In this document: positions 39,028 to 64,000 of the stretch, piece after piece
Numbering within the stretch: position 1 is the first letter of the stretch
Layout: every line of letters starts with the position of its first letter
IMG/VR virus record: IMGVR_UViG_3300020463_002440
Coordinates: 62,001-126,000 of that record
Origin: a virus
Length of the DNA: 64,000 nt
Strand: one strand, 5' to 3'
The notes under the pieces: model-generated
The model's input: the letters and a program-made list of their open reading frames with translations, nothing else
Databases searched by the model: none
Told to the model about the DNA's origin: nothing
Program-made: the position numbers and the translations under genes

Positions 39028-42000
39028 TTAAATTACTGCTCTACTGTTTGAAGCTCTTCTTGCGAGTTTTCTTACAGAAGATGTAAATGGTCGACCTTCG
39101 ATTCTACCTGTTCGACCGTTAATTCTTAGTCCTCTTGCGAAGTACTGGTTATTCAATTCATCAGCACCTGACCATCGGATTCTACCACCGTCCTCATTAA
39201 GAACCGAAGCAACTGCTGATATAGCAGCACCTAAGTTTCTAAAGTTCAGAGGTAATGCATTTCTGTTAACACCTGCTGATGCACCGTTAAACTGGTGAGC
39301 AATAGATTCAACCAATGATCCAAATACTAATGTATCAGGTTTAAGTACATTACTCTTCAGACAATTATCAAATAATGCTTGTATCATTGCTGTATGATCT
39401 GAATCAGGAGATAGATTATTTACAAGATAATCTCTCATTCGATCCCACGATCCAGTAAATGCATCTAACAAGTCTGTATTGTTAGCACCTTCTAATACCC
39501 AAGTTGAACCATTCCAATAATATATATTACCTGCATACAGATTTGTTGTGAAATCAGTAGCAACAATATATGCCCAGTTTGGTTTCTGTCCTGTAATAGA
39601 ACTTAACGCAGCCACATCAACAACTGATCCTTTATATTTCAATCCTTGCATTGTTGGATTGAATACTGGGAACACATGAGTACCATCGTAATCAAAGAAT
39701 GTTGCTGTAAATGTTCTTATTGCGTTCTGATTACCATTTGTTTGATAGCTTGGTCCTACTGCTTGTGTATCTACATATTTGAAATCATTCTGTAAAGCAG
39801 TTAGTAAGTTTCTTGCATCACGTCTTGTTAGATTAATATCAAGGAAGTTATATGTAGCATTTACATATCTTACAGTATCTTTCTGTAATCCTTTTCTTCT
39901 TTGAGCAAGTATATCTTGAGCATCTGTAAATACTGCATCGCTGTAACTGTAATCAGGTTCAGTTTTAACAGGTAAGTACTTAGTATCATTATTTATTTGA
40001 GTTAAGAAGAATATATCTGCAAGATCTTTAACCTTCTTGCTTTCAACTGCAGTTCCTAATTCACCAAGTATCTTCTGACCTTCGTATTCACCAATTACAA
40101 TATCTTTACAAATCTTACCTAATTGACGATATGCTTTTGCAGTTGGTTCTCGTTGATCTTCAGGTAATCTGTAAACTTGATTCCAGAAGTAGAAATCAGC
40201 ATTCCATCTTGACGCGGTATTACCACCGAAGTTCAAGTCAAAGCTGAATGCATCAAGTAAGAAACCTGTATCTCTTCTACATTTATCTTTGTTGTAATCA
40301 AGTACAGTGAATTGATTGTTTATAAATTCAGTTACATCGGAAGCAAGTTCTTCAGTATTATCAACAAGTTTCTGAGCAGCATTACTAAGTTCAGTTGTTG
40401 GGAAACTTGAAGTTGATACTGGTCTTGGCAATTCGTCATTATCATTAGATCTTATTGATTGTTCGATAATACCAACTAAGTTAGTAACCTCAGTACCTTC
40501 AGTTGAAGTAGCTGCTACACCCAATGTATTTTGCGGAGTTAAAGTATATGTACTTGCATTAGTTACTGGAGTTTCTTGAACTACTTGAGACATTGCATTA
40601 CCAAGCAACTGTAATATATCAGCGTATTGTCTTTGCTGATCTACTTTAAGTACTGATACTTCTTTCTCAAAGTAAATGCCTGCTGATTGTAATGATGCGA
40701 AGTTTGTTTCATATTGAACATCGTGTGATATAGCATCAATAGTATATCCTATATCTCTTCTACATCTTGCTCGAGGGAAACTCAATCCGTTATGATTAAC
40801 TGATATATAACTGATAACACCTTCTGCGGCAGTATGAGATAGTCTTTCAACAAGCTCTTTAGCAGTTACATAGTTATCTCCCATCCAAGTTTGATCCACA
40901 TCAATTCTTTCAGGAATTGTAGATCTTACTTCATAAGAATCATCAACCGCATTGGCAATAAGTTCAACTAGCTTTCTTGTAGCAATACAAGTATTTGGAT
41001 TTGCACCGTGTATCGAGAAGTCTTGAGCTTCTGTTGTTTGATACGAAGGTACGCCGTTCCAATATTCGTATTTAGTTACAATATCACCAGTATAATATTT
41101 TCCTGTTCTTGGGAATAGTTTTGTTTCAATATCCTTAGCACCAACAACATGTTCTATAACTTTTGCCATGTGTAAGAATGCATCTCTTGTTCCCATGTAT
41201 TGTTCGATCTGTAATCCAGTATTTACTGTATTTTCAAAATACATTCCTGCAGTTTGAACTGAAGCCGCATTACCTCCATATTGAATGTCATGAGAAACTG
41301 CATCAATAATATATCCAGCATCTCTTCGACATTTCTCTTCACTGAATGGAAGTATATCATAATTTTCTGCAAGATAAGCAAGCAAGTCTTTAGCAACCGT
41401 TTCTTTAACTCCAAGTACTTCATTAAACGCTGTTTGATTAACTGCAGCATAATTTGATACTTTAGGCAATTCATAAGCAGGATTCAAGAGTAAGGTTGCA
41501 CTTGTAAGAGCATTTGCACAAAGATCAAATAAACCTTCCATTTCGGCGCCGAGTGGAGCACCACCTGAACCTGAACTGAAGTCTTGACTTAACGCATTAT
41601 TTGCTGATTTTAAACCAGCAATATCAGTATCTTGGACAATTAAATCAACACAATCTCCAATATGTTTAAATAGCATAGCTGAAGGCTCAACTTGATTTGT
41701 AGGTAAGCCAACATTAACTCCCTTTTCAAAATAAAGTCGAGTAAAGTTTTGAGTAGCAAAGTTACCTTGATGTTGTCCGTCAAATGAAACTGCATCAATC
41801 AAGTATCCTGTATCTCTTTCGCATTTAGCAACATCGTGAACATGGCTTGGATAATTTGCCTCAACCCATGCTGTTGCTTCAGCTATTAAGAATGCTTTGT
41901 TATTTTGTAATTGAGATCTACCATTTATTCGAGCAACACCTTGAGCATTTGTAGTAAAGTTGATTGCATCAGCAGCACTTCTACCATTTGTCATAACATC

Positions 42001-45000
42001 AATTATTTCGTCAAATGCTTCTTCAACTTTAACCTTTAGTGCTGAATCAGTAACTGCTTTAACTGCCAAGCCTCTTGCAAATTTAATACCTTCAACTGTT
42101 TCAGTTAATTGTTCGTTAATTACTCTGTTTGTACTTACAGTGTCAATTCTGTAAGCAGTACCATTAAATACTGCATTATAGTTAGAACCGGTGAGTACAT
42201 CAACCGCAACTGCATCAAGAAGTAAACCTATGTCTCTCTTACATCTATCTCCATCAAATGTATAATAACGATCTTTCAGATAACCTTGTACTTCTTCAAT
42301 AATAAAGTCTCTGTTTTGTTGTAATTGCTTTCTTGCTAATGTTCTATTCGGATCAAACGAAGCCTTAGTTAATGTTGGGAATTCATCATCTTCGATATTT
42401 ACATCATCAACTAATTGAGCAATTGATTCAATTAAATCATGCAATCTTGTAGCTGTTGCTGTATCAGCTGCAGTTCCATCTGTATTTTGATAAGGACCTG
42501 TACTAATTGCACCAGTATCGGCTGAAACAAATGAATGTGCATATTGACCTGAACCACCAGTACCAACATTCATTGTTATAGATGTACTAGTAATTGATGT
42601 AATCTTAACTGCTTTTCTATAATGAGGATGATGTGCTTGTGGCTCGGTATGATTTTGTGGACCGCTACCCATATCACAACTGAATGTAAATCCATTTGGT
42701 TTTAGATAAACTTTGTTTCCTACATCAAGTGTATGACTTCCAATTGTTGCTGTAAATACTCCAGTTGCTGGATCGTAAGTGGCATCAGTTGGATTGAATG
42801 TTGTAAAGTTTGTAGTATGAGCAACTTCTTTCGCAATCTTTTCAGCAACATCTGCTAAGTGAGAGAATGCCTTTTTCGTTGGTTCTCGTTGTTCATAAGG
42901 TAATACATTAATTGATTCTCTTAATCCTGAAACATTAGCAGTATCTTCATAATCGGATAATACTTTAAACTGTCCTTTTACTTCAATAGGTAATACATTA
43001 GTTGATCTTAATTGTTCGTAATCAGCCGATGCAGAATTGAATCTTCTGAAGTAGTAATCAAATACTTCTAATGTATTTTCATTTCCACCGTATTCAATAT
43101 CTCTTGATACTGCATCAACAATTAAACCAACATCTCTTTCACAAACCTCGGCAGCATAAGGTAATCCTTTATGTTCTTTTCTTAGGTAATCAATTACTGA
43201 CAATGAAATATTTTCGGATATTCCATCAATTGCAGCACAAGCAGTTACCATTGCAGTTTCAACATTAGGTTCGATGTAATCAGGCAAATGATCTATTGTA
43301 TCATCAGAGAGTGCTTGAGTTACAATATTAACTCTATCTCTTGCTAAGTTAGCAACCTCAATACCTCTATCAGTTCCTGTAACATCTTGTGTTACTGCAT
43401 TTCCTGTGGAAGGTGTGATTGTTATATCTCTAACAATACTCCAAGCAACTTCAGCTATATGTTCCCAAACTTTAACAAATGGTTCTTTTTGAGATATAGG
43501 TAATACTGATTCTCCGTTTTCAAAATACAATCTTGCAAAGTTAACAGAACATGTATTTCCGCCAAACCTAACATCTTGTGCTAGTGAATCAACCAAGTAA
43601 CCTGTATCTCTTGCACAATCAGCAGTATCATAAGAGTGGCTAGTATTCTGAGAAAGCCAAGCATTAGTTTCAGCAATAATAAATGCTCTATTAGCAATTA
43701 ATTGATTAGAAGCTTGTTTATGATCTTCTGTTAAAGCAGCTTCATCACCGTATGTTGTCACACCAGTATTGGCTGCACCATTTGATATGATATTAATAAT
43801 TCTATCAAAGTGTTGATTTGCTCTTGTAAGTGCGGTTCCTGTAACATTAGGATCACCGGCAACTTCAGATTTTAAGTAATTAATTGCACCTACTGTTTGT
43901 GTTAACTGATCGTTAATAACTTTGTTAGCACCTACTGAACCAGTTCTATAACCTAGTCCCATGAATTGAGAATTCCAAGTAGAGCCTGTAGCAATATCTC
44001 TTCTTACTGAATCAAGAATGAATCCTGAATCTCTTGTACATTTTTCACCGTTGAATACAAAGTATTCAGAATCTAAATAATTATTAACTTCTTTTTGTAA
44101 GAACTCTCTGTTAGCTTGTATTTGTTCTCTTGCATATTGACCTTGAGAATTATAAGTAACTTTAGCTACTGAATCTTTAATGGCCGATACAAATGTATGA
44201 GTTCCACCTGAACTTGCAAGAAGCTGAACAGTAACATCATTACCATTAACGGCTGTGACAGCTGTTGGAGTATTATAAACTGCATCACCTTTTCTTGGAT
44301 ACGAATGTTCAGTTGCATTACCGTCTTGTGTACATGTATAAGTAAATGAATATGGAGCAAACTGAACATAGTCATTTGTTGTTAAATCATGACCAGGAAT
44401 TGTCATTACAGTAATTCCTGAGGTAGGATCGTAAGTAGATGTTGTTGGTGTATAATGTTTAACAACTGAAGCAGGATCTGTAAATAATAATGCATCTGCA
44501 TCTATACAGTTAACCTCTGCACTAACAAACGTATGAGCTCCACCAGGACCTGCTCCTACATTCATTGTAATTGTATCAGAAGTTGCTGAATCAATTCTTA
44601 TAGGCTTCTTATAAGTAATACTATGATGTTCTTGAGGAACTGCATGATTGTAAACATTTCCATCCATTGTACATGTAAATACAAACGACCTAGGCTTAAT
44701 TGTTATATAATCGCCTGCTTCTAAATTATGTTGTCCAATTGTGGCAGTCATTACACCGGTTGCTTCATTGTAAGTAGCAGTTCTTGGTGTATACGTAGAT
44801 ATGTAATTACGTGTCTTAATATTATTTGCTGTTGCTGATATAAATGTATGAGGAGATGTATCAGACGAAGTACCTGCATTAATTGTAATCGTTGTGTTTG
44901 ATGTAGCAGCTACTACCATTGGCTTCTTATAAGCAGGATGTTCTCTTGTTCCTTGAATGGCACCTGTAATAGCAGATACAAATGTATGAGTACCTGATGC

Positions 45001-48000
45001 GTAATTTCCTCTTACCTTACCAACATTACATCCAATTACATTACCTTCAACTGAAGTAAGGGTAACTTCTTTTCTAAAGTTAGGATGGTGTTCTTCAGGT
45101 TCAGGATGACTTGTTTGATTATTATCTAACAGGCAAGACCATGTAATACCTCTTGTGGCAAATTTAATCTTATCGCCTACTCTTAATTTGTTAGTTCCAA
45201 TATCAGCAGTAAACTCTCCAGTAGCAGGATCATAAGTAGCTGTACTTGGAGTAAAGTTTGTTACTGTCTTTGTTGGATACGAATGCTGAGATGCATTACC
45301 ATCCAAATCACAAGTATATGTTAAGCTCTCAGGAGCAATTAATATTTCTTGTCCGATTTGTAAATCGTGAGAACCAATTGTAAGTACGTTTAGACCTGTA
45401 ATAGGATCGTAAGCAGAATCTGAAGTTGAATAAGTTTTACCTGTACTATTTAAAATACTTGTAATTTTATCGAATGCTTCGTCTGATCTGAACCCAGAAG
45501 CTTTATCATCAATTGCCTTAACATGTGAGATTGCATTGTTTGAAGCAGATACAAATGTATGAGGATTAGATCCACCGTACCCAACAAACATTGTGATAGT
45601 TGTTGGTGTTGTAGATTCAATTGGACAAGGATGATTAAAGAAAGGATGTCCTGGATTTGGAACTGCATCGTTTGTAGGTCCACTTCCTGTATCACAACTG
45701 AATGTAATACCATCTTCAGCAAACCTTACATAATCTCCTGCTTGTAATTTGTGACGACCGATAGTAGCAGTAAATATTCCAGACTCAGGATTATATGATG
45801 CATCAGTTGGAGTAAATGACAATCCTTGATTCTTTGCAGGAGTAATTGCGTTTGCGACTGCAGATACAAATGTATGTTCTTGCTGTCCTGTTGATCCACC
45901 ATAACCAGGATTCAATGTAATAGTTGTATTTGATACTCCTATGATTGGACAAGGAACGCCGTTTGCATATGGGTGATGCGCTTCAGGAACCGCATGGTTT
46001 GTAGGACCTGAACCAGTATCACAACTGAATGTAATACCTTGCATCGCAAATACAACAGTATCTCCAACAGCCAATGTATGAGCACCAATAGTTGCTACCA
46101 TGATTCCGGTAGAAGGATCGTAAGTTACGTCAGTAGGCTGGAATCCGCTTTCTGTCTGAAGTGTATTAACTCTTCTCTTAAGTTCGTTTATTGCACCTGT
46201 TGTTTGTACTAACTGATCGTTAATTACATTATCAGCTAACTCCGTACCTGCACGATAAGCAAGACCTGTTTGATATGCATTATAATTTGAACCTGTTAGA
46301 AGATCTCTTTCAACTGCAGGTAAAATGTATTCTCTAACATCTCTTCTACATTTGGCAGAATCATATCTGAAATATGTTTCATCAAGATATCCATCAACGT
46401 AATCCATTAAGAATGTTCTGTTTCTTTGTAATTGCTTTCTTGCGTTTCTCTTATTAGCAGGAATGCTTGCACTATCAGACCATTTGATAGTATCGCCTAG
46501 TACTGTAACTGCGCCTTGTGCAGCTTCGATGAATTGATACTCAAACGCAAATGGTTGTGTACCAACGTCAACTGTAATTTTATGAGGTACTGCACCTAAT
46601 ACTTCGACTGGAGTTTCATCAGCAGGATAACCTGCTTTTGGATAATAGGCTCTTGTTGTATGATTATCTCTGCTACAAGTCATGGTGAAACCACCTCTCT
46701 TAAGCAATACATAATCACCTATACTTAATCCGTGACCTGACTGAATAGCATTTGGAGTAGCAGAAACAAATGTATGTACTTGTTGACCAGTATCTCCACC
46801 ATAACCAACATTCATTCTTATTTTATTTCTACTTACACCGATAATTGGACATGGCTTTTCGTAATAAGGGTGGTGAGGTTCAGGAACCGCATGATTTGTA
46901 GGACCTGATCCAGTATCACAAGACCAAGTAACACTCTCAGGATTAAACCAAACAAAATCTCCTACTTCTAATTCGTGAGCACCTATATTGGCCTCCATAA
47001 TTCCAGTGGCAGGATCATAAGTTCCATCAGTCATTTGGTGAGCTTTTGAATTACCCATTGTGATAACGAATAAACCAGTTACTGGATCATAAGTTGCACC
47101 AGTAGGTGTATATTGTTTTCCTTTATTCTCAAGGATTTGTAAAATGTTATCGTAAGCATCATCAAGTCGTTGTGAAGCAAGATAAGAATCACCATCTATT
47201 AATTCATTAGTTTGATCCTTTAATCTATTATAAGCAGCAACTGTTTCGTTATTTTGATTTTGTATAACTGCTTTTGCAGATTGCATATAATATGCTCGAC
47301 CTGCAGTAAGTGAATTATAGTTAGTTTCAAATAACATGTCATTCTTAACGGCAGGAATAATATAATCAGAAACATCTCGACGACAAGATTTACTATCGTA
47401 TGCAAAGAACTCATCGTTGTTTTCAATCCAATCAATTAGCTCTTCAGTAACAAACTCTCTATTGTCCTGTAGTAGTGTTCTAGCTGCTGTTCGAGGCACA
47501 GAAGTATCTTGCCATATAATCGGGTTGATGTTCTCTTCACCGTATTCTAAGACATTTAGAAGTTCAGCAAAGGATGTATCAATTCTTGGATTAATTTCAT
47601 TATTTGCTGAAACAAAGATTTCTTTTGACCTGTCTCTTAAGTATTCGTTTGCACCTTTTGTTTCTTCAAGCTGTTCACCAGGAACAACATAACTGATTGG
47701 AGACCTATAAGTAATACCAGCAAGTCTTCCCCAATAGTTTGTATCAAGTGCAACGTCATAACCTGTACCGTCAATTATAATACCTGAATCTCTTAAACAT
47801 TTTTCTGAATCGTATTCTTTATAACCTAATCCACCGTTTGCTGAATTTGCTGTTAGGTAATCAACTACATCATCAATAACATCGTCAGCCGCATTATCAA
47901 TTGTATCAGCGAAGACTGTATTACCAATAATAAGATTAGAGTTTATACCTCTTGGAGCAAAGAATTCAGTTGTACCTTTTGCTCTCATTGATATATCACC

Positions 48001-50295
48001 GAACTGTGTACCTGAGTTGTTCAGCGTCATTTGACCACCGTTCAGTGCATAGAATGCACAACGAACAAATATTGATAATGAACCAATACCGTTAACACCA
48101 GCACCGTCTCTAGCAACATATCCTAAACCGTTTTGTGTACGAGGTGTGAAACCAAAACATAATACATATGTATATAATGAATCAGTATCAAGTACTCTTC
48201 TATCTGCAAGTACACAACCACCACCACGACCAACTTCTCTATTTGGGAAATCGTCCATGCCGATTGATTGTATAACACCTGTACCACCTGACTCACAAGT
48301 TACTGTATCTCCTACAGCAAATCCTTCGCCATTCTTCAGATTACGAACTCTGATAATACGATTTACTTCGATATCTTTATCGTTACCTTTTGTTACATCG
48401 TCAGTATCTTCCCACGATAGGAATCCTACAGCACCTGATGAGAATACAACTTCATCATCTTTTTGCCATAACTGTCTTGCTCCACCGTTACCTGGGTAAT
48501 TACCTAATGATCCATTTCCGCTATCAAATGTATGGCCCGGTGCCAATGTAAATGTTTGACCAAGGTCAGCAAGAGTACCTTTTGAGTTATAAGGATTAAG
48601 AGGTGGTTCAACATCTTGTCTTAAGAAGTTTGATAACTGAGTACTATCTCTAAGATATGGAGATCTTAATAGTTTAGCACCTGGTCGATATGCAATCGCA
48701 AATCCACCTTCTGGGAAATCAAAGTTATCAACTTTAAAGTTTTGATAACCGAAACCTTGAACATAACAACCAGAACCAACTAGGATTCCGTTATTGTTCT
48801 CGAATCCAGGAAGTAATTCAATTACTGTAGCATACTGACCTGCGGTTGAAGTACAGGAACAATCATCAGGTAACTGCAGATTACCTTTTGTATAATAAGT
48901 TCCTGGTCCAACCGAAATATGAACAGCATTATTAATTGCGTTACGATTTAATTCGCCACCTGCTTTTTCTAAACAAAGTTCAAATGCTCTCTCAAGAGTT
49001 TTAACAGGAGCTAACATTGTGCCAGGATTTTTATCATCACCTGATCCTGCATCAGCATGTACTTTTAATGCTTGAGCTGTTTTCTTAGATACTTCTTCGA
49101 ATAATTGACCGAAGTTAATTTGTTCTGTATCACCTGTCTTTTCGTTACGGATTGCGAAATATGAATCATCATCTATAGGAGCTTCAAACTCTTTAGTAAG
49201 ATCCATATCAAAGTCGGCAAGTCTTGATCTATCAATTGTACCGCCACTAAATACTGATCCTGAAAGTGCACCATTATCAAACGTTGAATTATTTGCTCCA
49301 AGACCATCGGCAGATGAACTACGGATTGTCATATCGGTTGCTACGACATTCTGCATTGTACCTTGGAAGTCAGTATTAGAAATTGTTCCATCGGTGAATA
49401 CTGAATCATCAATAGTTGAATTTGTTAATGTTACATTGTTTCCTGTACCATCGTTAAACTGAGAATTTGTTATGATAGTGTTATTTGAAGTACTATCATT
49501 AAGTTGTGAACTTGTAAGAACAACATTATTACCTGTGGAATCTGTTATAACTCCATCATCAAATATTGAACTTGTAAGTGTAACATTATTACCTGTGCCA
49601 TCATTAAACACTGATTGTGTAATTGTTACATTGTTTGCTGTTGAGTCATTAAGAACAGAATTAGCAAGTCTTATGTTATCACCATCAACATCTGACATTG
49701 TGCCAGTTGTAAACGACGAACTTGTTATTGTAATATTATTTGCTACAGAATCAGTAATTGTAGAATCATCAATTGTAGAATTAGTTAATACTACATTATT
49801 ACCTGTGCCATCATCAAACGACGAATTAGTAATCGCAACATTGTTTGCTGTGCTATCGTTAAGTTCAGAATTTGTTAGAACAACATTATTACCTGTACCA
49901 TCATTAAACACCGATTGTGTAATTGTTACATTGTTGGCAGTTGAGTCAAATATTCCACCGTTCGTAAACGTAGACGATGTCATTGTAATATTGTTAGCGG
50001 TAGAATCTGTTATGACTGTATCGTCAACAGTTCCACGAACAAAATTAGTATCTTCTATATCCGAATTATCAATTTTAACGTTATCAAGTCTAGAATCTGA
50101 CATGACAACACCGGAGATTGTACCTCCTGTAATAGTTATTCTTGAAAAGACCTCATACTGAATTGCTTCAACTAATTCTTTTCGAGTAATATTACTTGTG
50201 CCGTCATCACCTTGAACAAGGTTAACGATGACAAATAGGTCTTCTGACCTGGTATTGGCACCGGTAATCGGAGGTAATTCTGAAATTTTTGCCAT
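39028..50295 (-). CDS. Giant modular beta-helix fibre/adhesin, 3755 aa
   Basis: The head MAKISELPPITGANTRSEDL is shared with structural proteins of T4-like cyanophages. Residues about 45-320 are short pentapeptide-like repeats (NNVxITxSxFNDGTG, DSTANN) expected to form a beta-helix. Residues about 410-780 are a pectin-lyase-type beta-helix (SGDDKNPGTMLAPVKTLERA; ISVGPGTYYTKGNLQLPDD). The remainder interleaves two repeated modules. Module A, about 12 copies, is (K/R)CxRDxGxxIDAVxxDIxxGxN. Module B, eight to nine copies, is TYDPxTGxxxATIGxHxLxxGD followed by a CDxGSGPxNHxxPxxHHP-type Cys/His block and an HTFVSA ending. It ends in FARGLRINGRTGRIEGRPFT and a basic tail, without S74. Module B Cys/His residues might bind metal or disulfide-link; inference only. 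Probably a host-contact fibre. Confidence 0.82.
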   Translation of the reverse strand: MAKISELPPITGANTRSEDLFVIVNLVQGDDGTSNITRKELVEAIQYEVFSRITITGGTISGVVMSDSRLDNVKIDNSDIEDTNFVRGTVDDTVITDSTANNITMTSSTFTNGGIFDSTANNVTITQSVFNDGTGNNVVLTNSELNDSTANNVAITNSSFDDGTGNNVVLTNSTIDDSTITDSVANNITITSSSFTTGTMSDVDGDNIRLANSVLNDSTANNVTITQSVFNDGTGNNVTLTSSIFDDGVITDSTGNNVVLTSSQLNDSTSNNTIITNSQFNDGTGNNVTLTNSTIDDSVFTDGTISNTDFQGTMQNVVATDMTIRSSSADGLGANNSTFDNGALSGSVFSGGTIDRSRLADFDMDLTKEFEAPIDDDSYFAIRNEKTGDTEQINFGQLFEEVSKKTAQALKVHADAGSGDDKNPGTMLAPVKTLERAFELCLEKAGGELNRNAINNAVHISVGPGTYYTKGNLQLPDDCSCTSTAGQYATVIELLPGFENNNGILVGSGCYVQGFGYQNFKVDNFDFPEGGFAIAYRPGAKLLRSPYLRDSTQLSNFLRQDVEPPLNPYNSKGTLADLGQTFTLAPGHTFDSGNGSLGNYPGNGGARQLWQKDDEVVFSSGAVGFLSWEDTDDVTKGNDKDIEVNRIIRVRNLKNGEGFAVGDTVTCESGGTGVIQSIGMDDFPNREVGRGGGCVLADRRVLDTDSLYTYVLCFGFTPRTQNGLGYVARDGAGVNGIGSLSIFVRCAFYALNGGQMTLNNSGTQFGDISMRAKGTTEFFAPRGINSNLIIGNTVFADTIDNAADDVIDDVVDYLTANSANGGLGYKEYDSEKCLRDSGIIIDGTGYDVALDTNYWGRLAGITYRSPISYVVPGEQLEETKGANEYLRDRSKEIFVSANNEINPRIDTSFAELLNVLEYGEENINPIIWQDTSVPRTAARTLLQDNREFVTEELIDWIENNDEFFAYDSKSCRRDVSDYIIPAVKNDMLFETNYNSLTAGRAYYMQSAKAVIQNQNNETVAAYNRLKDQTNELIDGDSYLASQRLDDAYDNILQILENKGKQYTPTGATYDPVTGLFVITMGNSKAHQMTDGTYDPATGIMEANIGAHELEVGDFVWFNPESVTWSCDTGSGPTNHAVPEPHHPYYEKPCPIIGVSRNKIRMNVGYGGDTGQQVHTFVSATPNAIQSGHGLSIGDYVLLKRGGFTMTCSRDNHTTRAYYPKAGYPADETPVEVLGAVPHKITVDVGTQPFAFEYQFIEAAQGAVTVLGDTIKWSDSASIPANKRNARKQLQRNRTFLMDYVDGYLDETYFRYDSAKCRRDVREYILPAVERDLLTGSNYNAYQTGLAYRAGTELADNVINDQLVQTTGAINELKRRVNTLQTESGFQPTDVTYDPSTGIMVATIGAHTLAVGDTVVFAMQGITFSCDTGSGPTNHAVPEAHHPYANGVPCPIIGVSNTTITLNPGYGGSTGQQEHTFVSAVANAITPAKNQGLSFTPTDASYNPESGIFTATIGRHKLQAGDYVRFAEDGITFSCDTGSGPTNDAVPNPGHPFFNHPCPIESTTPTTITMFVGYGGSNPHTFVSASNNAISHVKAIDDKASGFRSDEAFDKITSILNSTGKTYSTSDSAYDPITGLNVLTIGSHDLQIGQEILIAPESLTYTCDLDGNASQHSYPTKTVTNFTPSTATYDPATGEFTADIGTNKLRVGDKIKFATRGITWSCLLDNNQTSHPEPEEHHPNFRKEVTLTSVEGNVIGCNVGKVRGNYASGTHTFVSAITGAIQGTREHPAYKKPMVVAATSNTTITINAGTSSDTSPHTFISATANNIKTRNYISTYTPRTATYNEATGVMTATIGQHNLEAGDYITIKPRSFVFTCTMDGNVYNHAVPQEHHSITYKKPIRIDSATSDTITMNVGAGPGGAHTFVSAEVNCIDADALLFTDPASVVKHYTPTTSTYDPTSGITVMTIPGHDLTTNDYVQFAPYSFTYTCTQDGNATEHSYPRKGDAVYNTPTAVTAVNGNDVTVQLLASSGGTHTFVSAIKDSVAKVTYNSQGQYAREQIQANREFLQKEVNNYLDSEYFVFNGEKCTRDSGFILDSVRRDIATGSTWNSQFMGLGYRTGSVGANKVINDQLTQTVGAINYLKSEVAGDPNVTGTALTRANQHFDRIINIISNGAANTGVTTYGDEAALTEDHKQASNQLIANRAFIIAETNAWLSQNTSHSYDTADCARDTGYLVDSLAQDVRFGGNTCSVNFARLYFENGESVLPISQKEPFVKVWEHIAEVAWSIVRDITITPSTGNAVTQDVTGTDRGIEVANLARDRVNIVTQALSDDTIDHLPDYIEPNVETAMVTACAAIDGISENISLSVIDYLRKEHKGLPYAAEVCERDVGLIVDAVSRDIEYGGNENTLEVFDYYFRRFNSASADYEQLRSTNVLPIEVKGQFKVLSDYEDTANVSGLRESINVLPYEQREPTKKAFSHLADVAEKIAKEVAHTTNFTTFNPTDATYDPATGVFTATIGSHTLDVGNKVYLKPNGFTFSCDMGSGPQNHTEPQAHHPHYRKAVKITSITSTSITMNVGTGGSGQYAHSFVSADTGAISTGPYQNTDGTAADTATATRLHDLIESIAQLVDDVNIEDDEFPTLTKASFDPNRTLARKQLQQNRDFIIEEVQGYLKDRYYTFDGDRCKRDIGLLLDAVAVDVLTGSNYNAVFNGTAYRIDTVSTNRVINEQLTETVEGIKFARGLAVKAVTDSALKVKVEEAFDEIIDVMTNGRSAADAINFTTNAQGVARINGRSQLQNNKAFLIAEATAWVEANYPSHVHDVAKCERDTGYLIDAVSFDGQHQGNFATQNFTRLYFEKGVNVGLPTNQVEPSAMLFKHIGDCVDLIVQDTDIAGLKSANNALSQDFSSGSGGAPLGAEMEGLFDLCANALTSATLLLNPAYELPKVSNYAAVNQTAFNEVLGVKETVAKDLLAYLAENYDILPFSEEKCRRDAGYIIDAVSHDIQYGGNAASVQTAGMYFENTVNTGLQIEQYMGTRDAFLHMAKVIEHVVGAKDIETKLFPRTGKYYTGDIVTKYEYWNGVPSYQTTEAQDFSIHGANPNTCIATRKLVELIANAVDDSYEVRSTIPERIDVDQTWMGDNYVTAKELVERLSHTAAEGVISYISVNHNGLSFPRARCRRDIGYTIDAISHDVQYETNFASLQSAGIYFEKEVSVLKVDQQRQYADILQLLGNAMSQVVQETPVTNASTYTLTPQNTLGVAATSTEGTEVTNLVGIIEQSIRSNDNDELPRPVSTSSFPTTELSNAAQKLVDNTEELASDVTEFINNQFTVLDYNKDKCRRDTGFLLDAFSFDLNFGGNTASRWNADFYFWNQVYRLPEDQREPTAKAYRQLGKICKDIVIGEYEGQKILGELGTAVESKKVKDLADIFFLTQINNDTKYLPVKTEPDYSYSDAVFTDAQDILAQRRKGLQKDTVRYVNATYNFLDINLTRRDARNLLTALQNDFKYVDTQAVGPSYQTNGNQNAIRTFTATFFDYDGTHVFPVFNPTMQGLKYKGSVVDVAALSSITGQKPNWAYIVATDFTTNLYAGNIYYWNGSTWVLEGANNTDLLDAFTGSWDRMRDYLVNNLSPDSDHTAMIQALFDNCLKSNVLKPDTLVFGSLVESIAHQFNGASAGVNRNALPLNFRNLGAAISAVASVLNEDGGRIRWSGADELNNQYFARGLRINGRTGRIEGRPFTSSVRKLARRASNSRAVI
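42480..47110 (-). repeat. Module-B array (TYDPxTG / Cys-His block / HTFVSA) in the 3755-aa fibre
   Basis: Eight to nine degenerate copies of a domain of about 95 residues, some truncated (for example the one ending near 45270). Full copies have a Cys followed about 12-18 residues later by His and then HHP. Each begins with the TYDPxTG turn and ends with HTFVSAxxxAI. They are interleaved with Module-A (CxRDxG) repeats. Confidence 0.75.
49330..50170 (-). repeat. Pentapeptide-like repeat region near the N-terminus of the 3755-aa fibre
   Basis: Dozens of short, alternating units of the form N(N/D)(V/I)xxTxSxF(N/D)DGTG and DSTANN. The hydrophobic position recurs with pentapeptide-like period, as in right-handed quadrilateral beta-helices. 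The DNA repeats are degenerate. Confidence 0.7.
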
Positions 50296-57166: not shown

Positions 57167-59119
57167 TTAAAATTCCAATACAAACTTAAATTCCTCTCGG
57201 GAGAGGTCGGTTCTTGCGAGTGGGAAGAAGTTTTCCATGAAGTATACTTCGCCCGATCTTTGTATATAGTCTGAGTAAATTATATTATCTGCTACTGGAT
57301 TATTTATTGTGATTGTCTGTCCTCCTTCTGATCTTATTGTCAAATTAGGATTAAAAGATGTATCTCCATTTCCAGCCAAACCATTATTTACATTAGGTCC
57401 CATATATTCTGCTAAGTAAACTGTATTTGCGCTTGTATCAATTTCATGTACTTTTGCTGTAAATACTATCTCGTTACTTCCGTCAATTTGAGTGATTGTA
57501 CTGTTTGCTGTTAGTTTACCGTAATCGTTTGTTACGATTGCGATTCTGTTATCAAAAACATCAGGTGTAGGTGCAGTGTTTGCTTGACCACTTCTCCATA
57601 CTCCATTTCTAGGTGCAGTGTCTACATCTAGAAAATCCGGGCCTCTTATAATGCCAACCGCACCATAAGTATTTACATCACCAATTTTTGTATTGTCTTC
57701 TGCTGTAATATATCCATACATTGAAAAATGCTTACAACCAAATTCATCAAATATATTATATCCATGTCCGCCTGCTGGTTCAATAATAGGTCTTAAGACT
57801 GCTCTTACATCAGAGGTTGCATCATCCTCAGGATTAAATCCTACATTTGGATCAACAAGTGTGGATGTTGCATTTCGATATCCTGTACCACGATTTAGAA
57901 TTGTAACTTTATTTACTTTTCCATTTGCTATATCAGGAATTGCGATTGCGCCTGTTCCATCTCCAACAATATCTATTCTTGGAAACAATTTAATATTTGA
58001 AGATGCTGAAACCCCAGAAACTTGTAAATCTTTATCTGCTTCAAATGTTCCTCCGCTTGTATAAGCTCCAAATGCAGATCCGTTAACCGCAGATGATGCA
58101 GCCGCATCAGTATATAACTCAAACGTATCAGCGTCTATTCTTTTTGCATAATAGAGTGGAGTACCATCGTTATTGACATCGTTAATATCTGTCATTCCTA
58201 ATACATCTTTAAATGTTATTGGCTGATTTACTGCTGAGCTTAATCCATGAGCTGTTGAAGTTATCACAATTGGACTTGCCTGAGTTGCTCCTTCTACATT
58301 ACCTTTTGTTGGATTTGATATTTCAGGACTTAAAATAAAATCAGCGTTTGTTGATGTTGGATTATAAGTATAACTTCTTATTTTGAATAAATTTGAAACA
58401 TTATTAACATTGTTTGTTACATAAAGATATTGTCCTACATAAGAATCTGGAATTTGAAGCCAATCTGTTTCCTTTGGTGCGATTGTCATTGTTGAAGTAT
58501 TGAAATCAATATTTCTTGTAAAGCCTGTCTTTTCAAAATATCCGTTATTATCCAATGCATTTTCTACTTGAATATCAGACATACCGCCACCTACAACTGG
58601 AGATGGGGAAGTATAAGCTCTATCAATAGGAATATAACCTAAAGCATTATATGCTTCAAATTCTAATGTTGATAGACGATACATATATTTCCATACATAA
58701 CCATCTGCAGTTTCATAAATCTGATTTAAATTTGCAGCATCATATGTAGGAGGGGATTCAACTGTCCCAGCTCTATTGTTATCTAGACATTTGTAAATTC
58801 TGTAATCACCGGTGTCATTATCATTAGGACCAACTACTGCATAGTATTTAAGTCCGTTTAGATCAATTGTATCATCATATTGAGAATATACTTGTCCTCT
58901 TTGCCAAGGATAGTATCTTATCATAAAATTAATATCGTCGTTATTAATTCTTTTTCCAAATAGTATATTCTCTAAGAATTCGTTTTGAGACACCGCAGAA
59001 TCCACAGGATTAAAATTCCCAATTGTAGAGACAATCATATAATAATTCTGATTTGCCTCAGTATCAGTAACAAAGAGTTTATTTAGATCACTCTTGAAGT
59101 TATTTGTTAGAATTTCCAT
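57167..59119 (-). CDS. 8: Baseplate wedge subunit, gp8-like
   Basis: 650 aa, larger than T4 gp8 but similar to the enlarged gp8 of marine T4-like phages. It starts MEILTNNFKSDLNKLFVTDT. Family-typical blocks are NFMIRYYPWQRGQVYSQYDD, YRIYKCLDNN, and TADGYVWKYMYRLSTLEFEA (compare the DGYVWEYLF segment of T4 gp8). The extra length sits in the middle as beta-type insertions, for example ITSTAHGLSSAVNQPITFKD, a module common in phage structural proteins. A late box about 33 bp upstream heads the unit gp8, DUF4815, 61 aa and S74 fibre. Confidence 0.85.
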   Translation of the reverse strand: MEILTNNFKSDLNKLFVTDTEANQNYYMIVSTIGNFNPVDSAVSQNEFLENILFGKRINNDDINFMIRYYPWQRGQVYSQYDDTIDLNGLKYYAVVGPNDNDTGDYRIYKCLDNNRAGTVESPPTYDAANLNQIYETADGYVWKYMYRLSTLEFEAYNALGYIPIDRAYTSPSPVVGGGMSDIQVENALDNNGYFEKTGFTRNIDFNTSTMTIAPKETDWLQIPDSYVGQYLYVTNNVNNVSNLFKIRSYTYNPTSTNADFILSPEISNPTKGNVEGATQASPIVITSTAHGLSSAVNQPITFKDVLGMTDINDVNNDGTPLYYAKRIDADTFELYTDAAASSAVNGSAFGAYTSGGTFEADKDLQVSGVSASSNIKLFPRIDIVGDGTGAIAIPDIANGKVNKVTILNRGTGYRNATSTLVDPNVGFNPEDDATSDVRAVLRPIIEPAGGHGYNIFDEFGCKHFSMYGYITAEDNTKIGDVNTYGAVGIIRGPDFLDVDTAPRNGVWRSGQANTAPTPDVFDNRIAIVTNDYGKLTANSTITQIDGSNEIVFTAKVHEIDTSANTVYLAEYMGPNVNNGLAGNGDTSFNPNLTIRSEGGQTITINNPVADNIIYSDYIQRSGEVYFMENFFPLARTDLSREEFKFVLEF

Positions 59120-59168: not shown

Positions 59169-61409
59169 CTAGGATGAGTACGATACCTTTGGTCGAGGCC
59201 ATGCTCTACCTGATAATGGTCTTCTTCCTTCGCTTGTTTGTTCTGAACCACCTGCGATATATTTACCGCTTCCCATACGTATTCCCCACGGAATATGTAC
59301 TCTTAATGGAGGTGTTCCATATAGTTCTGTTAAATCTGCTCCACCGTTTTGATAATCATTATCGGAAATACGATTAACATTAGATGATGAATATAATTTT
59401 GATGATGCAACATCGCTTGGAGGATAAACGTATGGAGGAGTAGCACGGCTTCCTGCTACATTAGAAAAATCAATACCGTCCATTCCTTCACCAATTAAAT
59501 TTGCCTTTGCGTGCTTTTTCATCAATGCTTTTAAATCTGCTATGCTTGGATATACTCCTCGTTGAGTAAAATACCAATCTAAGAATACAGTTGCACAACC
59601 TGCAGCGACAGGAGCTGCACAACTCGTTCCACTAAAGTATCCCCAATTTCCATCAGAATAAACACCTGCTGGATTGCTTGTCCAAGTATATGCTCCATAA
59701 GCAGCAAAATCAATCTGAGGTCCACGACTACTATAATCATCCATTAATCTATTTGTATCATCTTGTTGGCAAGCGGCAATTGTTAACTGATTATCTCCAC
59801 CAGATATTTCCGTTCTTAAAGGATACAGAGTAACTTGAGATGTTTGAGTTGAAGTAGTAAAAACATTTCTGTCGTTAGTGATTGTATTTGTAACATAATC
59901 AGCACCAGCGTCAATTCTTACTGATGTATCAAATCTAGGATCTGATGGACTTGCACCAATATGTGCGTTATTACCTGCACTTGCAAAATGATATATTCCA
60001 TTATAACTATTATACTGACCCATAACCGTATCAAAGAAAGAACCTCTTGTTTGGTCAGGTATCGAAATCATCCACTTATCAGTACTATCTGCAGGATCAT
60101 TAATGACCCTTGGAATAATTAAGTTATTAGCAAATGCTCTAAAGTCTCCTAGCCATCGAGTTGTATCTTTTGTGCAAGAAATAGTACCAGTCATACTTGA
60201 ATGAAAATCACAAACATAATCATATATGACTGTTGAGTCAGGTAAAGTAAATGTAACAGTGCTTGTTCCTTGGCCTGTTACTCCTGCGACATTAGAACCG
60301 CTTTGTCTGATATATAACGGATGTCCACCTGAAGCTTGATTATTAATAATAACAGTATCACCTGGATGCGCAGTGATTCCTCTATTATTAACACCAGCAC
60401 TTGCATTTGTTCCTTCGTATATTCTATCTTCACCTGAAACAATATATGCAGACGAACCTGTGGCAGTCATTGTAATGTTCCAAGTTGCTGGTTGAGCATC
60501 ACCACGATTTATTGTTGTTGAATTACCTTCTGCATCATAAGCTATGATTTGATTTACATCATCAATTTTATAAAACTTTTCGTGGTCAACGCCAACATAA
60601 CCCCAAGCACCTGTTACGACCGTTGCATTACGAACTCCTGTGGATGGATTTACCGCTTTACTATTATGCCATTGAAGTACTGCATAGTAAGCGTTAGTTG
60701 TACCATCAGCCAAATATATAACTCTTAGTGTTGACTTTTTACCCCAACCACAAAACTTACCACCTGCTGCACTTAATACTCCAATTGCATGAGATGAGAA
60801 CCAGTTTGTGTTATTATTTGTTACTTGATTATTTCTTGCGGATGTAACTGCACCATTTTGAGTTGACCAATCCATAGGAACGAATTTAGAATTATTAGAA
60901 TCCCATTCTTCAAAATCAACATGATCTTCATGACCTGCATTTCCTGAGGCAGGACTACCTGCTTCAATCGCAACAATATCTACAAACTCTCCAAGGAAAT
61001 TACTTTTAACTGTATCATCAAATTGATAATCGCCAAAATAACCTATTGGAGGAGATGCGTTTTGTGCAGGATCAAATTCACTTGTATAAAACATATTCAT
61101 ACCAGTATAATCTGCACCGTTAGAACCGCTTGTTGGATTATATCTTGTTCTATATGTTACTGAAGGACTTTCATATCTTGGTGTTGAAGTTGGATATGAC
61201 ATTTCCACAGTTGGTCTTTCTGGTAAACATTCTTTAACAAAAGAAACTCCTTGAAGTATTTCTCTTTCAGGATCTGTTAAATTCATACATATCATACCAT
61301 CCCAAAGATCGAAGTTATTGAGAACTTCCATTCCTGCTGCTTCGTTTGAAAGAAAGGCAGCTTCATCTGTACCTGGTTCTAGAATTACGTTATGAATTCG
61401 TTTACTCAT
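59169..61409 (-). CDS. Subtilisin-like (S8) serine protease with inserted cupredoxin-like domain, 746 aa
   Basis: The S8 fold is supported by FSSHAIGVLSAAGG (His207), YHFASAGNN (oxyanion Asn480/481), DYSSRGPQIDFAAYG, and FSGTSCAAPVAAGCATVFLD (Ser596). The usual Asp motif (IDTG) reads VDIVAIEAGSP, with Glu149 at the expected position, so the triad may be Glu-His-Ser or the acid may come from elsewhere. Between His and Asn, residues about 311-412 form a cupredoxin-like insert: TAHPGDTVIINNQ, GGHPLYIRQSG (His363) and YVCDFHSSMTGTI (Cys400, His403, Met406). The Cys-x2-His-x2-Met spacing is that of amicyanin. No signal peptide. Four bases separate it from the upstream cupredoxin gene. Likely a virion protein; it could process virion components or host surface proteins. 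Confidence 0.85.
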   Translation of the reverse strand: MSKRIHNVILEPGTDEAAFLSNEAAGMEVLNNFDLWDGMICMNLTDPEREILQGVSFVKECLPERPTVEMSYPTSTPRYESPSVTYRTRYNPTSGSNGADYTGMNMFYTSEFDPAQNASPPIGYFGDYQFDDTVKSNFLGEFVDIVAIEAGSPASGNAGHEDHVDFEEWDSNNSKFVPMDWSTQNGAVTSARNNQVTNNNTNWFSSHAIGVLSAAGGKFCGWGKKSTLRVIYLADGTTNAYYAVLQWHNSKAVNPSTGVRNATVVTGAWGYVGVDHEKFYKIDDVNQIIAYDAEGNSTTINRGDAQPATWNITMTATGSSAYIVSGEDRIYEGTNASAGVNNRGITAHPGDTVIINNQASGGHPLYIRQSGSNVAGVTGQGTSTVTFTLPDSTVIYDYVCDFHSSMTGTISCTKDTTRWLGDFRAFANNLIIPRVINDPADSTDKWMISIPDQTRGSFFDTVMGQYNSYNGIYHFASAGNNAHIGASPSDPRFDTSVRIDAGADYVTNTITNDRNVFTTSTQTSQVTLYPLRTEISGGDNQLTIAACQQDDTNRLMDDYSSRGPQIDFAAYGAYTWTSNPAGVYSDGNWGYFSGTSCAAPVAAGCATVFLDWYFTQRGVYPSIADLKALMKKHAKANLIGEGMDGIDFSNVAGSRATPPYVYPPSDVASSKLYSSSNVNRISDNDYQNGGADLTELYGTPPLRVHIPWGIRMGSGKYIAGGSEQTSEGRRPLSGRAWPRPKVSYSS
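60174..60479 (-). other. Cupredoxin-like domain inside the S8 protease gene
   Basis: Codes for residues about 311-412 of the protease. The candidate copper ligands His363, Cys400, His403 and Met406 are all present, within a beta-sandwich-like pattern (SSAYIVSGEDRI, GTSTVTFTLPDSTVIYDYVC). Confidence 0.7.
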
Positions 61410-61412
61410 TTA

Positions 61413-63293
61413 TTAGCTCTCGAGTTTTAATGCGTCGATGGTACAAGTAACTGTACTGGTAGATCCAGAATTATTTTGTATTGCTACTGGAACTTCGGTT
61501 TCACTGTCGTCTAACCATCCGAAGATGGCAGGAGTAATTTTAAACTCCTGAGTACCTGCAGTTGTTGAAATAAATTCTGCAAGAACACCTGATCCATCTG
61601 CAGGATCTGTTCCTTGAGTCCTTCCTGCATCAGCAGTTCTTGAAGATGTATCAGAATATATTCTTACCCAACATTGCTTATCAACTGTAACTTTTTGTAA
61701 CGCAAACGATTTGCCTAATGTTGCATATGCAACTGAACCTGAAGCACCATCTGCAATTGACCCAGTTGTTTCTGCTTCTTGAACTCTTGCAGCTCCACCG
61801 CCACCTGAAGAAGGATCTGAAATTACAATATCACCAATCATATTTGAATGGGCTTGACACTTATACTTATAAGTACCGCTTATATTTCCTGGTACTTTCC
61901 AATATAATGTTCCTTCGTATTTAGCTTGTGCGTTTGTACCTGTTGTTTTAGTACCGTCGTTTGCATAATGAACAAGACCTGTATTATATTGAGTTGAACC
62001 ATTACCTTCTAAAATTAAGAATGGGTGTGATGATGTTGCACCGTTTAATTCAAATCCAACTGTTTGACCAGCTTGTACATATACTGTTGGGTTATCACCA
62101 GGAAGTTGATCCATTGTATATTTTGAACTGTCAGGAGCTACAACATAATAAGTCGTTACTGCAGTTGCAGCCATGTCGTGAATATCAAGATCGGCTGTAT
62201 CGACTTCAGTTAATGCGGCAAGAGTAGAAGAACCACCTCCACCAGTTGCATCTGCAACCCAAGCAAAATCAGAACCTGTCCAACTTAATATCTGATCTGC
62301 ACTTGCACTGCCTGTATTTAAATGAGTATCAACATCAGAGTTTGAATATTGCGTAATGTCGTTTGATAGTTGACCTGAAGAAGCAGATAATCCTGTTCCT
62401 GCGAGCATAGCAACAAAGTCTGTTACTGTTTCTTTCTTTGTATCACCTGAATCATCTGCATCAATAAATGCAATACTATCTGCAGTGACGTTGAGAATAG
62501 CCGAGTCAACACTATTTAAATTAACACTGTTTGAACCACCGCCGCCGCCTGATGCAGCGATTGTTATTGTATCACTTACAGAGTTAGCAGATAAAGTAAC
62601 ATTAGCACCTGCGACAAAATTTAATGTATCAGTACCTGATGCTTGAATGTTAACACCACCGACTGCGATAGTTGTAAACGAATCTCCACCGCCTCCGCCA
62701 CTTGCGGCAGCCCAAGTATAATCTGAACCATCCCATTGTAAGAATTCGTTAGTACTTGCACCTGAAACATTTAAATGAGTATCAACATCAGAGTTTGAAT
62801 AAGAGCTGTTAGAACCTCCGCCTCCGCCGCCGCCAGATACTTGAACCCAGCTGTAACTTCCGTTTGCACTTGTTCCAAGAACATAACCATCTACTTCACT
62901 ATTTAATATATTGGCCGAATATACAAATGAATTAAGTGGATCTGCATAACTTGGTATTGTACCTTCTGATGTATCAGCAAGTAATCTTCTCCAACCTGCA
63001 TGTGCGTAATACAAGGACCCAGTATTGTGGGCATGTCCTATTGATCCATGATAAGTACTTGCGTCTACCGCAAAGAGATCTGTATCTGTATCATATAAGA
63101 ATGAAATCTTATTTGCTTTTGATGGGTAATCAATATTACCGTTTACGTCAAATATTCCAATTGGATTAGTTGAACTACCTAAAGCAAGGTAGAGCTCATT
63201 AAAGTTATCGTTTGATTTATCAAATGCATTACGTAACGGATCACCTGTCCCGTCATTTGCGGATGCACCTATATTAATTGTTTGCTTGGCCAT
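61413..63293 (-). CDS. Gly-rich virion/fibre protein with cupredoxin-like domain, 626 aa
   Basis: Starts MAKQTINIGASANDGTGDPL and FDKSNDNFNELY, a head shared by many marine T4-like structural proteins. Poly-Gly linkers (about 154-160, 199-203, 249-253, 351-354) separate beta modules, two of which contain SNSDVDTHLN. Residues about 378-492 are cupredoxin-like: GDNPTVYVQAGQTVGFELNG, SSHPFLILEG (His423), and YKCQAHSNMIGDI (Cys479, His482, Met485), the same Cys-x2-His-x2-Met spacing as in the neighbouring protease. The C-terminal about 120 residues are a beta-rich module (GKSFALQKVTVDKQCWVRIY). First gene of its late unit; the protease follows after three bases. Probably a virion fibre or surface protein that may bind copper; function unproven. 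Confidence 0.8.
   Translation of the reverse strand: MAKQTINIGASANDGTGDPLRNAFDKSNDNFNELYLALGSSTNPIGIFDVNGNIDYPSKANKISFLYDTDTDLFAVDASTYHGSIGHAHNTGSLYYAHAGWRRLLADTSEGTIPSYADPLNSFVYSANILNSEVDGYVLGTSANGSYSWVQVSGGGGGGGSNSSYSNSDVDTHLNVSGASTNEFLQWDGSDYTWAAASGGGGGDSFTTIAVGGVNIQASGTDTLNFVAGANVTLSANSVSDTITIAASGGGGGSNSVNLNSVDSAILNVTADSIAFIDADDSGDTKKETVTDFVAMLAGTGLSASSGQLSNDITQYSNSDVDTHLNTGSASADQILSWTGSDFAWVADATGGGGSSTLAALTEVDTADLDIHDMAATAVTTYYVVAPDSSKYTMDQLPGDNPTVYVQAGQTVGFELNGATSSHPFLILEGNGSTQYNTGLVHYANDGTKTTGTNAQAKYEGTLYWKVPGNISGTYKYKCQAHSNMIGDIVISDPSSGGGGAARVQEAETTGSIADGASGSVAYATLGKSFALQKVTVDKQCWVRIYSDTSSRTADAGRTQGTDPADGSGVLAEFISTTAGTQEFKITPAIFGWLDDSETEVPVAIQNNSGSTSTVTCTIDALKLES
61818..62156 (-). other. 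Cupredoxin-like domain in the 626-aa virion protein
   Basis: Codes for residues about 380-492. Candidate ligands His423, Cys479, His482 and Met485 occur in a SHPFLI ... YKCQAHSNMIGDI arrangement matching the domain in the adjacent protease gene. Confidence 0.7.
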
Positions 63294-63331: not shown

Positions 63332-64000
63332 CTAATATGTTATACTATAATTATTTTCCAGGTATTTATTGATGAGGTTTCGATGGTCAGCAGAAGTTGT
63401 ATGTCCTACTGCATCGTTCAAAAATATAACATCTCCGTAGTCAACGAGGAACGAGCTCGTTCCATATGATGTACCGTTTGATTGGCTACCTGAAAATCCT
63501 TGTGCTTGAGCAAACGCAAATGCACTATTTGGAGCGCTCAAGTGAGTCATACCTGTAAAGTTAGCACCACCGTTATATGGAATTACTGTATCGTTTGTTC
63601 CATTGAATTGTACTATTTTTCTTTGAGGTATTGGGTTTTTAATTGTATCATATCCATCGTTAGCATATGCATTACCTGTAAGTTCTTCATCTGCTGGATA
63701 ATAGAAATAACCACCTCTGTATTGGTCGTCATTAGTTTGTGATCCTCCACATACAATAACATCAACTGCCGGGTCAGTTATTTCTACAGCAGCTCTTAGT
63801 GCAAGTGCTCCACCGTTTGAGAATCCTAAAATTCTAAACTTGGTTGTATCAACATTATTATAAAGTTTCAGTTTAGTAATTAAATCATTTAACATTTCAA
63901 TATCAGGACCGTTACTCGGCTCGTTTGAAATATTCCATGTATCATTATAACCGTCTACTGCAACTAATACGTGTCCTGGTAATACGGAAGTATATCCACT
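63332..64000 (-). CDS. PHB-depolymerase/feruloyl-esterase-like alpha/beta hydrolase (5' end outside window)
   Basis: The frame stays open to the right edge (…VLPGHVLVAVDGYNDTWNIS…), so the true start is beyond 64000. About 222 residues are visible. Catalytic features of the LpqC/PHB-depolymerase esterase family are present: the nucleophile elbow GFSNGG within RILGFSNGGALALRAA, an Asp in FNGTNDTVIPYNGGA (compare the family HGxxDxxVPYxGG), and a late His in AVGHTTSADH. Such enzymes cleave ester bonds in polyesters or acetylated/feruloylated polysaccharides. The visible part looks like a free enzyme or the C-terminal domain of a longer virion protein. Placement before structural genes makes a virion-borne depolymerase plausible; substrate unknown. 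Confidence 0.75.
   Translation of the reverse strand, partial: SGYTSVLPGHVLVAVDGYNDTWNISNEPSNGPDIEMLNDLITKLKLYNNVDTTKFRILGFSNGGALALRAAVEITDPAVDVIVCGGSQTNDDQYRGGYFYYPADEELTGNAYANDGYDTIKNPIPQRKIVQFNGTNDTVIPYNGGANFTGMTHLSAPNSAFAFAQAQGFSGSQSNGTSYGTSSFLVDYGDVIFLNDAVGHTTSADHRNLINKYLENNYSITY

What the first reader, a model, noticed from the sequence alone, without database searches (positions are those of the whole stretch)
59169..61409. Phage subtilisin-like protease with an amicyanin-type copper-site domain inserted in its fold
The S8 blocks flank a domain with His363, Cys400, His403 and Met406. The Cys-x2-His-x2-Met spacing matches amicyanin, a type-1 copper protein (seen in sequence; ligand rule is established knowledge). 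A protease with an internal blue-copper-like domain, encoded next to gp8 in a virion operon, is unexpected. It might sense redox state or copper to gate proteolysis, or use the cupredoxin as an adhesion/stability domain (inference).
Basis: partly seen in the sequence, partly recalled or inferred. Interest (0 to 1): 0.8.

Follow-up and report, generated by a model that had tools for sequence, protein, structure and literature searches.

The report
Phage protease carrying a copper-protein domain
A marine phage makes a tail-region protease with a complete blue-copper-type domain plugged into its fold, and related viruses gain, lose, swap and move this domain while its four predicted copper-binding residues almost never change.

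Summary
The minus-strand ORF 59169-61409 (746 aa) is a divergent S8 subtilase. Residues ~305-415 form a cupredoxin domain inserted between the catalytic-His block and the oxyanion-Asn block. AlphaFold2 models the domain well (pLDDT 89.5); its best solved-structure matches are cupredoxins. A family profile aligns H363/C400/H403/M406 exactly with amicyanin H53/C92/H95/M98. Among 129 related domains, 123 keep all four ligands; of the six exceptions one is a true loss.

Close relatives lack the domain: one pair is 97% identical in the protease core and ~98% in DNA, but only one carries it. Another pair has ~90% identical cores with only 40% identical domains. The same module sits in other subtilase loops, at the C-terminus, in a neighbouring gene, and on non-protease virion proteins, including the next window gene (61413-63293).

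Best explanation: an exchangeable virion surface module on a tail-associated, zymogen-like subtilase, with selection keeping its metal site. Copper binding, protease activity and virion location are untested. I found no published description. The clade also has Glu149 where subtilases have the catalytic Asp.

The parts
59169..61409 (-). Subtilase-like (S8) protein of 746 aa with an inserted cupredoxin domain
   Evidence: ORF; PF00082 hits 17 of 32 aligned relatives, best 3.6e-13, but not this sequence itself at E<=1; S8 motifs conserved; Foldseek to EpiP, CspA, pro-subtilisin E
61215..61409 (-). Residues 1-65, probable I9-type inhibitory prodomain
   Evidence: Predicted beta-alpha-beta-beta-alpha-beta order with pLDDT about 90; weak Inhibitor_I9 match in two relatives, best E=0.04
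60963..60965 (-). Glu149, at the position of the catalytic Asp
   Evidence: Invariant Glu in all 32 aligned relatives; aligned to Asp150 of the ACG-2014j subtilase and to Glu in S-CAM1
60789..60791 (-). His207, catalytic His position (SSHAIGV)
   Evidence: Invariant
60165..60497 (-). Cupredoxin domain, residues about 305-415
   Evidence: Model pLDDT 89.5; best PDB fold matches are cupredoxins; profile match to amicyanin and plastocyanin; PF00127 found in 13 of 15 family members
60321..60323 (-). His363, predicted Cu ligand (aligns with amicyanin His53)
60210..60212 (-). Cys400, predicted Cu ligand (aligns with amicyanin Cys92)
60201..60203 (-). His403, predicted Cu ligand (aligns with amicyanin His95)
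60192..60194 (-). Met406, predicted axial Cu ligand (aligns with amicyanin Met98)
59970..59972 (-). Asn480, oxyanion-hole Asn position (SAGNN)
   Evidence: Invariant
59622..59624 (-). Ser596, nucleophile position (GTSCAAP)
   Evidence: Invariant
61413..63293 (-). gp9/10-like baseplate wedge / tail-fibre connector, 626 aa
   Evidence: PF07880 E=1.3e-5; PHROG 677 E=9.5e-42
61818..62174 (-). Second cupredoxin domain, with ligands SHPF...CQAHSNM
   Evidence: E=1.9e-10 to the domain profile; only these two copies in the 156-kb virus record
57167..59119 (-). gp8-like baseplate wedge subunit
   Evidence: PHROG 438 E=1.8e-47

Best explanation
The gene encodes a tail- or baseplate-associated subtilase built as prodomain, linker and S8 catalytic domain. 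A mobile amicyanin-like cupredoxin module is plugged into the loop between the strand after the catalytic-His region and the helix leading to the oxyanion Asn. Shown by sequence and model: the fold, the complete ligand set, the insertion, and its loss, swapping and relocation among relatives. Inferred: the module binds copper (or a similar metal) with the type-1 ligand set, and works as an exchangeable surface domain. Like the Ig-like domains of tailed phages it would add stability, oligomer contacts or attachment to host surface material, with the metal cross-linking the end of the fold. It would not be an obligate regulator of catalysis. Also inferred: the protease is carried in or on the virion, self-activates by cutting its prodomain, and trims virion or host-surface proteins.
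For: Fold and ligands. Ligands H, C, H, M plus one Pro and one Tyr are the fully invariant columns across 58 domains, and His and Cys use both synonymous codons; 123 of 129 distinct domains keep all four ligands. Dispensable: relatives without the domain; L056 versus L092 have 97.4% identical cores and DNA 98% identical on both sides of the missing domain. Swappable: L007 versus L016, cores 90% identical, domains 40%, with the sharpest DNA identity drop at the domain; the tree needs at least 5 label changes. Portable: the same domain lies before the His block, between His and Asn blocks, C-terminal, and by motif positions between Asn and Ser blocks; in S-BM3 and MED4-213 subtilases, a separate gene beside an S8 gene in S-SCSM2R, and gp9/10 connectors and tail fibres. 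Virion neighbourhood.
Against: No experiment shows metal binding, activity or presence in virions. If the domain were only an ornament, near-absolute ligand conservation is more than needed; one true ligand-less copy exists (L156). About half or more of the domain-bearing proteins found are subtilases, and repeated insertion in the same loop in distant subtilases (window clade, S-BM3, AG-345-F15) could hint at a functional link with proteolysis; the sampling was seeded with subtilase-borne domains, so this ratio is biased.
Confidence: 0.6

Rival explanations
1. The cupredoxin is a copper or redox sensor that gates the protease, for example freeing the cleft when copper is bound or reduced.
For: It sits between the His and Asn blocks, after the strand that by homology borders the S1 pocket; the same loop is used in S-BM3 and AG-345-F15; ligands are conserved.
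Against: Near-identical proteases lack it; it is swapped for a 40% identical version with little change in the core; it also sits at other sites and on non-proteases.
Confidence: 0.12
2. A cupredoxin-fold ornament in which metal is not bound in nature; the ligands persist because the fold needs them.
For: Ig-like and other beta-sandwich accessory domains are common on tailed phages (established knowledge); a ligand-less copy exists (L156).
Against: Four ligands invariant in 58 of 58 domains with mean identity 42%; cupredoxin folds without ligands are common elsewhere (for example non-blue domains of coagulation factors, established knowledge), so the fold alone does not demand them.
Confidence: 0.15
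3. The subtilase is catalytically dead or very weak and the protein is a structural tail component, with cupredoxin as one more structural module.
For: Glu instead of the catalytic Asp in all 32 aligned members and S-CAM1; some relatives are annotated tail fibre.
Against: His, Asn and Ser, with a prodomain-like N-terminus, are kept invariantly; Ser-His-Glu triads work in other hydrolases (established knowledge).
Confidence: 0.1
4. The site binds zinc or another metal as a structural cross-link rather than copper.
For: His/Cys/His/Met can take other metals when copper is scarce (established knowledge).
Against: The exact amicyanin ligand spacing and fold favour copper.
Confidence: 0.03

Closest known systems
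Amicyanin and plastocyanin (PF00127, type-1 copper cupredoxins)
   Same: Fold; four ligands in register with amicyanin H53/C92/H95/M98; C-x2-H-x2-M loop as in amicyanin
   Different: Not a free periplasmic or lumenal electron carrier: it is a domain inside a phage protease, with no evidence of a redox partner
Peptidase S8 subtilases with an I9 prodomain (pro-subtilisin E, EpiP, CspA)
   Same: His, Asn and Ser blocks, prodomain-like N-terminus, fold matches
   Different: Glu149 at the Asp position; long insertion with a cupredoxin; phage tail gene neighbourhood
Cyanophage S8 proteins with cupredoxins: S-BM3, S-H9-1, ACG-2014j, MED4-213, S-CAM1, AG-345-F15
   Same: Subtilase plus cupredoxin with full ligands; in S-BM3 and AG-345-F15 in the equivalent loop
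   Different: Others have it C-terminal, after the prodomain, or (S-CAM1) apparently circularly permuted; most keep catalytic Asp; none is annotated as cupredoxin in the records seen
Ig-like accessory domains of tailed phages
   Same: Exchangeable beta-sandwich modules on varied virion proteins (established knowledge)
   Different: Cupredoxin fold with a conserved metal site

Membership tests
Cupredoxin (type-1 copper) | Greek-key beta-sandwich fold | tested here: met
   pLDDT 89.5 model, top PDB matches nitrite reductase cupredoxin domain, rusticyanin, laccases; TMq 0.5-0.62
Cupredoxin (type-1 copper) | His, Cys, His, Met ligand set with cupredoxin spacing | tested here: met
   Register with amicyanin; invariant in 58 of 58
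Cupredoxin (type-1 copper) | Ligands close together in space | not testable with these tools
Cupredoxin (type-1 copper) | Copper binding, blue colour | not testable with these tools
   Needs protein
Pfam PF00127 Copper-bind | Score above the curated cutoff | tested here: inconclusive
   Window domain 19.3 bits versus cutoff 21.2; relative L072 22.1 bits passes; 13 of 15 members match
Peptidase S8 (subtilase) | Fold | tested here: met
   Foldseek to subtilases; PF00082 above cutoff in relatives such as L092 and L105
Peptidase S8 (subtilase) | Asp-His-Ser triad | tested here: not met
   Glu149 replaces Asp in all 32 aligned members; His207, Asn480, Ser596 present
Peptidase S8 (subtilase) | Peptidase activity | not testable with these tools
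   Needs protein
Virion (tail/baseplate) protein | Present in virions | not testable with these tools
   Only gene neighbourhood and PHROG 15006 'tail fiber' match

The most novel reading that the evidence does not exclude
A copper- or redox-controlled protease carried by a virus particle: the cupredoxin beside the substrate cleft senses copper or redox state at the host surface and switches tail-associated proteolysis during infection.
Probability: 0.1. Interest if true: 0.88.

Novelty: new variant of a known kind. Interest (0 to 1): 0.62.

Why it matters
Virion proteins of marine T4-like phages appear to carry a widespread, reshuffled blue-copper-type module that records leave unnamed or call tail fibre, hypothetical or PetE. 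If it binds copper, many marine phage particles are copper proteins, which bears on trace-metal budgets, particle stability and attachment. The near-isogenic pair L056/L092 makes the role of the domain directly testable. It also warns that a phage gene called plastocyanin (PetE), counted as a photosynthesis gene, can be a virion part. The Glu-for-Asp subtilase clade offers a test of an altered catalytic triad.

Tried and rejected
phmmer of the single protein against PDB: no hit; a profile was needed. Pfam on the window protein alone misses S8 and gives Copper-bind at only 0.073. First domain coordinates were out of frame. Global profile alignment of the S8 core with S-BM3 and MED4-213 failed, so their architecture rests on motifs read in the sequence. 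No cellular relative of the domain came from the one genome scan; its pattern was narrow, so this does not show absence. Literature searches found no description of cupredoxin domains in phage virion proteins. psbA was not found in this virus record, so a cyanobacterial host is not shown. The chance-motif explanation was rejected. Assembly error was rejected because many independent contigs and isolates carry the domain.

Full report
Observation. The ORF at 59169-61409 is on the minus strand and encodes 746 aa. Only two H...C-x2-H-x2-M candidates occur in the window's six frames, this one and one in the upstream gene.

Surroundings. Downstream lies a gp8-like baseplate wedge gene (57167-59119); upstream lies a gp9/10-like connector (61413-63293). 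The connector carries its own cupredoxin domain at 61818-62174; no third copy was found in the 156-kb virus record.

Fold of the domain. The domain model from a 15-sequence alignment has pLDDT 89.5 and pTM 0.81 and is almost all beta. Its best PDB matches are cupredoxins: nitrite reductase, rusticyanin, laccases. A profile of the family against PDB sequences finds amicyanin (E=8e-6) and plastocyanin (2e-5). Reading the printed alignment, the four residues fall on chain positions 53, 92, 95 and 98, which are amicyanin's copper ligands by established knowledge. Pfam Copper-bind is found in 13 of 15 members.

The protease. The full model (pLDDT 78.6) shows a prodomain-like N-terminus of residues 1-65, a low-confidence linker, and an S8 catalytic region. 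Fold matches include EpiP, CspA and pro-subtilisin E, with modest TM-scores. PF00082 is found in 17 of 32 aligned relatives. His207, Asn480 and Ser596 are invariant, but the Asp position holds Glu149 in all 32. A profile alignment pairs Glu149 with Asp150 of the ACG-2014j subtilase and with Glu in S-CAM1. By the letter of the S8 definition the triad test is not met; activity is unknown.

The insertion is real and mobile. Ten of 32 relatives lack the domain cleanly. L056 has it and L092 lacks it; their cores are 97.4% identical and their DNA is about 98% identical on both sides of the missing stretch. L007 and L016 share about 90% of the core but only 40% of the domain, and the DNA identity falls sharply at the domain and recovers after it. 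A tree of the core needs six changes of the with/without label, five forced by well-supported branches.

The module elsewhere. It occurs between the Asp and His blocks (L078; S-CAM1, where the C-x2-H-x2-M strand precedes the His strand, an apparent circular permutation), between His and Asn blocks (window clade, S-BM3, AG-345-F15), C-terminal (S-H9-1, ACG-2014j), and in some contigs, by motif positions, between Asn and Ser blocks. MED4-213 has one copy ahead of the catalytic domain and one after it. It also sits on gp9/10 connectors, tail fibres and an S74-type protein. In S-SCSM2R a 168-aa gene called PetE lies directly after a peptidase S8 gene; its N-terminus looks like a virion protein, not a signal peptide (reading of the sequence).

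Conservation of the site. Among 58 complete distinct domains with mean pairwise identity 42% (minimum 22%), the four ligands, the Pro after the first His and a Tyr before the Cys are the only fully invariant columns; His and Cys codons vary synonymously. In a wider set of 129, 123 keep all four. Three exceptions are truncated or permuted, two look misaligned, and one (L156) is a true loss in a protein with a second copy. Part of this wider set was fetched with a pattern that includes the Cys-His-Met loop, so it is not fully unbiased.

Mechanism. Selection keeps the metal site while the module comes and goes. That is hard to square with an obligate gate of this protease and fits a self-contained, metal-stabilised surface module. 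Whether it stabilises, oligomerises or attaches is not resolved. Copper binding, proteolysis and virion location are inferences.

Knowns and novelty. Cupredoxins, S8 subtilases and exchangeable beta-sandwich domains on phage tails are each known. Text searches of the held library found no account of cupredoxins in phage virion proteins; subscription papers are mostly outside it. I rate it a new variant of a known kind.

Noticed in passing
window 61818-62174 (-): Second cupredoxin domain with full ligand set in the gp9/10-like connector next door; also found in connectors of related contigs and cyanophages.
   Followed up: yes
window 60963-60965 (-), Glu149: Whole clade has Glu where subtilases have the catalytic Asp, with His, Asn and Ser intact: a possible Ser-His-Glu subtilase.
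   Followed up: partly
L001:5080-7335 (Synechococcus phage S-CAM1): Cupredoxin appears circularly permuted: the Cys-x2-His-x2-Met strand comes before the His strand, inserted between Asp and His blocks.
   Followed up: partly
L108:1788-2294 (Synechococcus phage S-SCSM2R): Gene annotated PetE sits right after a peptidase S8 gene and has a virion-like N-terminus; probably a virion cupredoxin rather than plastocyanin.
   Followed up: partly
L078:5962-8619: One subtilase with two cupredoxin domains, one before and one after the catalytic-His block.
   Followed up: partly
L156:1570-4698: Tandem cupredoxins, one of which has lost His, Cys and His of the metal site (YSAM): a natural ligand-less copy.
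   Followed up: no
window 39028-50295 (-): 3755-aa protein with an N-terminal run of short NNV-type repeats resembling a pentapeptide-like beta-helix, then repeated similar domains.
   Followed up: no
window 63332-64000 (-): Alpha/beta-hydrolase-like esterase domain (Abhydrolase_2 E=5.6e-4; PHROG 2576) upstream in the tail operon, running off the window.
   Followed up: no
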